A stretch of 57,682 nt of DNA from NCBI GenBank assembly GCA_900552565.1, contig USAK01000010.1, positions 1 to 57,682 on the forward strand. The letters are read 5' to 3'. How positions within the stretch are numbered: position 1 is the stretch's first letter; each line of letters begins with the position of its first letter. Shown here one piece after another: positions 26,782 to 27,140 of this stretch. Under the pieces are notes generated by a model. That model had not been told where the DNA came from, made no database searches, and saw nothing but the letters and a program-made list of their open reading frames with translations. Source of the DNA: an uncultured Selenomonas sp. (GTDB lineage Bacteria; Bacillota; Negativicutes; Selenomonadales; Selenomonadaceae). A program made the position numbers and the translations under genes.

Positions 26782-26825
26782 AGACACCCTTACAGACTGA
26801 CCAAGTCTGCAAGGGTGTTTTTCGT
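26782..26825 (+). terminator. terminator after the symporter gene
   Basis: ACACCCTTACAGACT pairs with AGTCTGCAAGGGTGT around GACCA, followed by TTTTTCG. Confidence 0.88.
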
Positions 26826-26845: not shown

Positions 26846-27042
26846 GGAGAGGCGGCCGCAGCCCAAAAGAGCAGCGTTCAAAGTTCTGCGTGAAGAACCT
26901 ATTTTTGTCTTCCGCTGTTTCCCTTGAAAAGAGTAACCGTTCAAGCGGCAGCGCGTTTTACTCTTTTCGAGGGATAAATTAAGAGACAAAAATAGGTTTA
27001 GCAGAACTTTGCCGCGGAGCGTTGGGCTGCGGCCGCCTCTCC
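26846..27042. repeat. 197-bp imperfect palindromic element
   Basis: The arms pair in four blocks: 26846-26865 with 27023-27042 (20 of 20), 26879-26889 with 27001-27011 (11 of 11), 26896-26910 with 26984-26998 (15 of 15) and 26921-26936 with 26958-26973 (15 pairs plus one G-T). Short internal loops separate them and a 21-base apical loop remains. It lies between two convergent terminators and encodes no credible protein. It could be a MITE-like or palindromic intergenic repeat, or an RNA hairpin. No target-site duplication was identified. A further small hairpin (27055-27071) follows. Confidence 0.75.
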
Positions 27043-27102: not shown

Positions 27103-27140
27103 AAAAAAGCTGCTTTCCTGAAATCTTGGAAAACAGCTTT
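27103..27140 (-). terminator. terminator after the amino acid permease gene
   Basis: AAAGCTGTTTTCC pairs with GGAAAGCAGCTTT across a 9-base loop, and the minus strand continues in a T run. Confidence 0.85.

What the first reader, a model, noticed from the sequence alone, without database searches (positions are those of the whole stretch)
26846..27042. 197-bp multi-block palindrome in a convergent intergenic gap
Four paired blocks (20, 11, 15 and 16 bp, about 62 pairs in all) are separated by small internal loops and a 21-base apical loop, and the outer 20-bp arms are perfect. It is not a terminator: both neighbouring genes already have their own (26782-26825 and 27103-27140). Long near-perfect palindromes are unstable unless maintained by selection or recent insertion. 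It may be a MITE-like mobile repeat or a stable hairpin RNA. The conservation of the arm tips is seen in sequence; the nature is inference.
Basis: partly seen in the sequence, partly recalled or inferred. Interest (0 to 1): 0.72.

Follow-up and report, generated by a model that had tools for sequence, protein, structure and literature searches.

The report
Covarying hairpin of a mobile repeat
The palindrome is one copy of an apparently undescribed family of about 190-base hairpins scattered through the genomes of Mitsuokella, Selenomonas and relatives, where it rides in small mobile DNA elements and keeps its folded shape, on one strand, while its letters change.

Summary
The palindrome is real (26846-27042; fold z = -13) but not unique. 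A covariance model of it matches 60 of 189 Selenomonadaceae genomes and 62 of 380 Negativicutes. Across 89 distinct aligned copies 97.0% of pair cells are paired and 51 of 57 pairs carry double changes; no shuffle reaches this. G.T outnumbers A.C 154 to 9, or 76 to 9 without the two columns whose usual pair is G.T: one strand, the window's plus strand, is kept foldable. In four Selenomonas genomes hairpins sit in 330-720 bp elements with inverted ends; 18 of 22 such elements hold two, pointing outward. One element is missing in two relatives. In Mitsuokella the inverted ends are hardly recognisable, and solo hairpins like the window's remain. No transposase was found. Nothing in Rfam matches, and five literature searches found no description. 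Best reading: a solo hairpin module of a MITE-like non-autonomous element, selected as a folded single strand. Whether that strand is DNA or RNA is open; I lean to DNA.

The parts
26846..27042 (+). whole hairpin; the plus strand is the one kept foldable in the family
   Evidence: fold; model R1 match 26856-27032 (+), 154.6 bits against 38.3 bits on the minus strand; strand asymmetry of mismatches in the family
26846..26866 (+). P1 5' arm (21 bp, pairs with 27022-27042)
27022..27042 (+). P1 3' arm
26867..26878 (+). junction P1/P2, 5' side; the family motif GCGNAGC is not exact here in the window (GAGCAGC)
   Evidence: family motif in 31 of 46 copies
26879..26889 (+). P2 5' arm (11 bp, pairs with 27001-27011)
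26890..26894 (+). five-base bulge GTGAA (family GTNAA) facing one base, 27000
26895..26911 (+). P3 5' arm with conserved T run (17 bp, pairs with 26983-26999)
26920..26936 (+). P4 5' arm (17 bp, pairs with 26958-26974)
26937..26957 (+). apical region, conserved in the family; holds GCGGCAGC (26945-26952) in place of GCGNAGC
   Evidence: family motif in 33 of 46 copies
27012..27021 (+). junction P1/P2, 3' side; GCGGAGC at 27014-27020 fits GCGNAGC
   Evidence: family motif in 27 of 46 copies

Best explanation
The palindrome is a solo copy of the structured hairpin module of a non-autonomous, MITE-like element family of Selenomonadaceae. SHOWN: the module is multicopy and dispersed; in Selenomonas, elements with inverted ends carry, in 18 of 22 cases read, two modules pointing outward; one such site is empty in two relatives; in Mitsuokella, modules stay at corresponding places between two species while their stems change by compensated double substitutions; one strand (the window's plus strand) is the one kept foldable. 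INFERRED: the conserved loops and bulge, spaced on helices of free sequence, are read as a folded single strand by a trans-acting protein. I commit to this being mainly single-stranded DNA, exposed during replication or transfer and used in mobilising or copying the element (about 0.5 against about 0.35 for RNA). The window copy would be a leftover that has no recognisable ends and no partner module but still folds.
For: Copies: 60 of 189 and 62 of 380 genomes. Fold kept: 97.0% of cells paired, covariation 0.672 against 0.179 shuffled and at most 0.101 when slid; 13 syntenic pairs with 44 compensated double changes against 21 single breaks, 9 against 1 for window and M. jalaludinii. One strand: G.T 154 against A.C 9, 76 against 9 without the two G.T columns, 43 against 8 strict and 81 against 6 in own folds; plus strand more stable in 89 of 92 copies. 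Element: end pattern 37, 78 and 62 sites with 0 for the reversed control, 22 units of 330-720 bp, two outward hairpins in 18 of 22, empty site over 798 of 800 bases in G151 and G161. For DNA over RNA: no promoter-like site, no strand bias relative to genes in line, and a symmetric element that gives each DNA strand one properly folded copy.
Against: No transposase, no autonomous copy and no consistent target duplication. One empty site only, in Selenomonas, none in Mitsuokella (uninformative). The window copy shows no inverted ends. Single copies are dispensable: three are reduced to remnants at two Mitsuokella loci. 1 of 22 units has no model match and 3 have one. The alignment used for pair counts was fitted to the model. 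DNA rather than RNA rests on indirect arguments; covarying structure in bacteria is usually RNA.
Confidence: 0.7

Rival explanations
1. The hairpin is a structured non-coding RNA (part of an RNA-protein particle, or a regulator) that is spread by the element and kept for the host or the element.
For: Loops conserved, helices covarying, G.U tolerated on one strand, as in RNA families in general.
Against: No promoter-like site in the two stretches scanned; no shared sequence upstream in Mitsuokella copies (no 8-mer in more than 6 of 35); position beyond terminators; no strand bias relative to genes in line (8 against 9); no Rfam match.
Confidence: 0.35
2. Palindrome upkeep without selection: one arm templates repair of the other, so double changes arise by themselves.
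For: Template switching at imperfect palindromes is known (recalled); palindromes here also die by losing their centre.
Against: It should also close the internal loops, which are conserved in the family, and it should not make G.T much commoner than A.C on one strand.
Confidence: 0.08
3. A giant REP/BIME-like repeat moved by a Y1 (RAYT) transposase.
For: Intergenic, strand-specific, structure kept, inverted pairs, as in REPs (recalled).
Against: Y1_Tnp (PF01797) has 0 matches in six hairpin-rich genomes, G006, G151, G163, G148, G181 and G184, while 14 of 22 genomes searched have it, M. jalaludinii (14) and M. multacida (5) among them (completeness of the genomes is not told). REPs have no long inverted ends (recalled).
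Confidence: 0.05
4. A bidirectional transcription barrier or terminator kept between convergent genes.
For: 13 of 31 Mitsuokella copies, the window's included, lie between convergent genes and 1 of 31 between divergent genes.
Against: 17 of 31 lie between genes in line, 9 of them on the strand opposite to the genes; no T run after the stem; the conserved loops have no role in termination.
Confidence: 0.06

Closest known systems
MITEs and other dispersed bacterial hairpin repeats (ERIC, Correia/NEMIS, YPAL, bcr1; names recalled, not compared by sequence)
   Same: Non-coding, intergenic, multicopy, inverted ends, can fold as a hairpin; one empty site.
   Different: Here the fold is a separate 190-nt module, usually present twice per element pointing outward, with sequence-free stems and conserved loops on one strand.
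REP/BIME repeats with RAYT (recalled)
   Same: Intergenic, often in inverted pairs, strand-specific folded unit.
   Different: About five times longer; inverted ends; no Y1 enzyme in six rich genomes.
Integron attC sites (recalled)
   Same: Stem sequence free, shape kept, one strand meant to fold.
   Different: Much larger, three GNA motifs, pairs in inverted orientation and no gene cassettes seen; attC boxes and an integrase were not searched for.
Single-strand origins (sso) and primosome sites of rolling-circle replicons (recalled)
   Same: Long imperfect hairpins that act as folded single-stranded DNA on one strand, with conserved loops.
   Different: Chromosomal, many copies, both strands served by inverted pairs; no replicon; no match to one element in the plasmid records.
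d(GCGNAGC) extra-stable DNA mini-hairpin (PMC4686876, passages seen)
   Same: GCGNAGC with free N stands at three loop places in 31, 33 and 27 of 46 copies.
   Different: At the P1/P2 junction the two sides covary with each other (helices 2 and 3), so there it more likely forms a GNA/GNA internal loop; the mini-hairpin form is not shown.

Membership tests
MITE (non-autonomous inverted-end element) | short, no coding capacity, dispersed copies | tested here: met
   330-720 bp, repeated copies; no gene shared among 107 loci other than host families seen in the clusters inspected
MITE (non-autonomous inverted-end element) | terminal inverted repeats | tested here: met
   in Selenomonas; not recognisable around the window copy, and two lone hits in 22 Mitsuokella loci
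MITE (non-autonomous inverted-end element) | mobility (empty site in a relative) | tested here: met
   one element: G006 filled, G151 and G161 empty; two Mitsuokella tests uninformative
MITE (non-autonomous inverted-end element) | target-site duplication | tested here: inconclusive
   22 elements read, a short TA-type match in a few, nothing consistent
MITE (non-autonomous inverted-end element) | ends shared with an autonomous transposon | tested here: inconclusive
   none seen among listed end pairs (list cut for G161) or near the outer ends
REP/BIME with RAYT | Y1 (TnpA-REP) enzyme in the genome | tested here: not met
   0 matches of PF01797 in six hairpin-rich genomes (genomes may be incomplete)
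Rfam RNA family | match at gathering score | tested here: not met
   0 matches; below-threshold hits only, to unrelated microRNA and other models
Structured non-coding RNA | covarying structure on one strand | tested here: met
Structured non-coding RNA | transcription | not testable with these tools
   no RNA data; promoter-like sites absent in two stretches scanned
Integron attC or single-strand origin | integrase, or rolling-circle replicon, acting on the folded strand | not tested
   no search for IntI, attC boxes or Rep proteins was made

The most novel reading that the evidence does not exclude
The module is a folded single-stranded-DNA device. Because a typical element carries it once on each strand, whichever strand becomes single (in replication, transfer or uptake) presents one properly folded copy, which a protein reads by shape (GNA junction, GTNAA bulge, apical GCGNAGC). 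This would be a class of mobile element organised around inverted, shape-read DNA hairpins.
Probability: 0.3. Interest if true: 0.82.

Novelty: new variant of a known kind. Interest (0 to 1): 0.64.

Why it matters
It gives a large natural data set (many paralogs per genome, corresponding copies across species) in which a 190-nt fold is held while its letters turn over. That makes it possible to ask directly whether a mobile DNA element can be under selection as a folded single strand, and it offers a conserved loop set with which to fish for the protein that reads it. It also warns that intergenic palindromes in these bacteria should not be written off as terminators or chance.

Tried and rejected
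Chance palindrome: rejected. Terminator: no T run after the stem. Known RNA: no Rfam match at the gathering score. Phage or plasmid origin: a 16-mer of the arm gave 34 single hits in viral contigs, which I read as chance and did not follow; the palindrome has no match in phage records and one Selenomonas element none in plasmid records. REP/RAYT: Y1 enzyme not found in six rich genomes. Autonomous element: not seen among listed end pairs, among ORFs shared by 107 loci (the 25 largest clusters inspected; 5 proteins scanned: two MatE, one GGDEF, two without a family) or at the outer-end pattern. Empty sites in Mitsuokella: at the two loci tried, the flanks lie kilobases apart or only one flank matches in G003, G004 and G005, so nothing was learned. 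Intrastrand triplex repeats (PMC4666352, passages): a different kind of repeat. Papers on folded single-strand sites (none) and on insertions near terminators (listing only): nothing that fits. PMC13155455 on hairpins across genomes was seen in a listing only.

Mended on recount: the first count of elements next to a terminator-like stem (16 of 22) includes 8 whose stem belongs to an outer piece carried with the element; without elements bearing that piece it is 8 of 13. The G.T count includes two columns whose usual pair is G.T; without them it is 76 to 9. An earlier count said 11 of 11 loci keep hairpins; one search supports 10 of 11. Entry 4 says that paired hairpins always diverge; L146 holds two in the same direction. 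Entry 2 says that all copies fold alike; L059 is a half copy that does not.

Rows dropped before counts: L059; 4 of 23 near-duplicates before alignment A1; strand counts use 46 of 92 rows (under 85% identity).

Full report
OBSERVATION. The palindrome lies at 26846-27042 between two convergent genes. Its outer 21-bp arms are perfect, its fold is 13 standard deviations below shuffles, and it is the most stable 210-nt stretch of the window at the steps scanned. The window shows no second copy (one model match on each strand at the same place).

HOST. The neighbouring permease is 97% and 96% identical to those of Mitsuokella jalaludinii DSM 13811 and M. multacida DSM 20544, so the window comes from a Mitsuokella or a very close relative. 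No whole genome is held for the window itself. Of the 20 related permease loci, only these two species' loci hold a blastn match to the palindrome.

COPIES. With blastn the palindrome has 10 matches in M. jalaludinii (G001), 11 in M. multacida (G002), 1 in G003 and 2 in Selenomonas ruminis (G006), and none in three others: 4 of 7 genomes. Folded one by one, the copies share one plan; the exception is L059, a half copy that was dropped. A covariance model R1 built from 19 copies finds 60 of 189 Selenomonadaceae genomes (E up to 0.001) and 62 of 380 Negativicutes (E up to 0.0001).

ANATOMY. Four main helices are joined by fixed elements: junction P1/P2 (about CATAAGCGNAGCGTT facing GCGNAGCGTTG), a five-base bulge GTNAA facing one base, an asymmetric P3/P4 loop, and an apical region around CAAGCGNAGCGCGTTT. 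GCGNAGC stands at the three loop places in 31, 33 and 27 of 46 non-redundant copies; in the window it is exact only at the 3' junction. P3 holds a nearly invariant T/A run. Shorter forms with only P1, the junction and a tiny cap also occur in Mitsuokella, three of them about 123 bp apart with different P1 arms.

SELECTION ON THE FOLD. On 92 aligned matches (89 distinct), 97.0% of cells pair and 51 of 57 pairs have changes on both sides; covariation is 0.672, against 0.179 in shuffles and 0.083-0.101 when one side is slid. The alignment was fitted to the model, which favours pairing, and shuffles do not keep relatedness. In 13 syntenic pairs of Mitsuokella copies, 44 base pairs changed on both sides and stayed paired, against 21 single breaks, 7 double breaks and 24 changes to or from G.U; window against M. 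jalaludinii gives 9 compensated, 2 G.U and 1 broken. Three of the 13 pairs are only 76-78% alike, so for two of them (L134/L143, L131/L139) replacement by another copy cannot be excluded. Mismatches are one-sided: 154 G.T against 9 A.C, 76 against 9 without the two columns whose usual pair is G.T, 43 against 8 with Watson-Crick neighbours required, and 81 against 6 in each copy's own fold. On the other strand these figures would be reversed, so the window's plus strand is the one that must fold.

MOBILITY. In Selenomonas many copies lie inside larger near-identical repeats. A 17-base end pattern gives 37, 78 and 62 sites in G006, G161 and G151, with 0 for the reversed pattern. Sites pair head to head; 22 distinct units of 330-720 bp were read from four genomes (G006, G151, G152, G161). 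Of these 22, 18 hold two hairpins, always pointing outward, 3 hold one and 1 none at the cut-off used. Close pairs in Mitsuokella also point outward, except L146 with two in the same direction. The joined flanks of one G006 unit align over 798 of 800 bases in G151 and G161, between two terminator-like hairpins: an empty site. A perfect stem of at least 8 bp lies within 70 bp of an end in 16 of 22 units, against 6 of 422 windows further off; in 8 of the 16 that stem belongs to an outer piece carried with the element, and without such units the figure is 8 of 13. Intergenic position explains part of this. No consistent target duplication and no transposase were found. The outer piece has ends like GGGACTGTGAAA, and one locus carries it without hairpins.

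MITSUOKELLA. Ten of eleven M. multacida loci have a syntenic M. jalaludinii locus that also holds a hairpin (the partner loci were chosen because they hold hairpins, so this is not a retention rate). Three pairs have the hairpin in opposite orientation, in one case with the gene beside it inverted as well. The 17-bp ends of the Selenomonas type are gone apart from two lone hits in 22 loci; one locus, L137, shows a different inverted end. Of 31 hairpins (30 in loci L129-L148, and the window's), 13 lie between convergent genes, 17 between genes in line (8 on the same strand, 9 on the other) and 1 between divergent genes (simple codon-based gene calls, corresponding copies of the two species both counted). 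In 24 of the 31 the hairpin's 3' side faces the nearer gene (my count; the window copy is not one of them), as expected if many are outer parts of former elements. Copies die by losing their centre: the second hairpin of L132 is reduced to its arms in L142, and L035 and L036 each carry one such remnant at the window's own locus. Single copies are therefore dispensable, while intact ones stay paired.

MECHANISM. The facts ask for something that reads a folded strand. RNA is the usual answer. Against it stand the place beyond terminators, the lack of a promoter-like site in the two stretches scanned, the lack of strand bias relative to genes and the symmetry of the element, which gives either DNA strand one folded copy. 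GNA and GNNA loops closed by at least two G-C pairs are reported to form extraordinarily stable DNA mini-hairpins (PMC4686876, passages); in the junction, however, the two sides covary with each other, so there the motif more likely forms a GNA/GNA internal loop. I put folded single-stranded DNA at about 0.5 and RNA at about 0.35; both remain inference.

NOVELTY. Nothing in Rfam 15 matches at the gathering score. Searches pairing Selenomonas or Mitsuokella with MITE, palindrome, REP and structured-RNA terms, and one for bacterial MITE hairpins, gave no description (listings only; most subscription papers are not held). I file it as a new variant of MITE-like elements; membership is met on dispersal, inverted ends (in Selenomonas) and the one empty site tested, and open on transposase and target duplication.

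Noticed in passing
L137:7922-8352 against L141:9113-9545; L131:9316-10672 against L139:7634-8990: Between M. multacida and M. jalaludinii a hairpin-bearing segment, and in the second case a gene beside hairpins, is inverted at the same place; inverted hairpin copies may serve as recombination sites.
   Followed up: partly
L271:1501-1629; L248:1501-2323: A second, smaller repeat with ends GGGACTGTGAAA and an internal terminator-like stem occurs alone (L271) or around a hairpin element (L248); nested insertion or composite element.
   Followed up: partly
L126:1132-1860 (G163) and L114 (G144): In other Selenomonas genomes the hairpin is paired with a different left half that looks structured too and has other ends; the family may have several element types.
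   Followed up: no
L056:2688-2984; L068:1211-1262; L133:5586-5637; L143:13784-13835: Mini-hairpins with P1 and the conserved junction but almost no inner part, three of them in a row about 123 bp apart with different P1 arms.
   Followed up: partly
G029-G041: A block of genomes with many weaker matches (best E about 1e-8 to 1e-11), perhaps a diverged branch of the family.
   Followed up: no
G144, G161 contig ends: Many contigs of these assemblies end about 30-140 bp from a hairpin, as expected if recent identical copies break the assembly; copy numbers there are underestimated.
   Followed up: no
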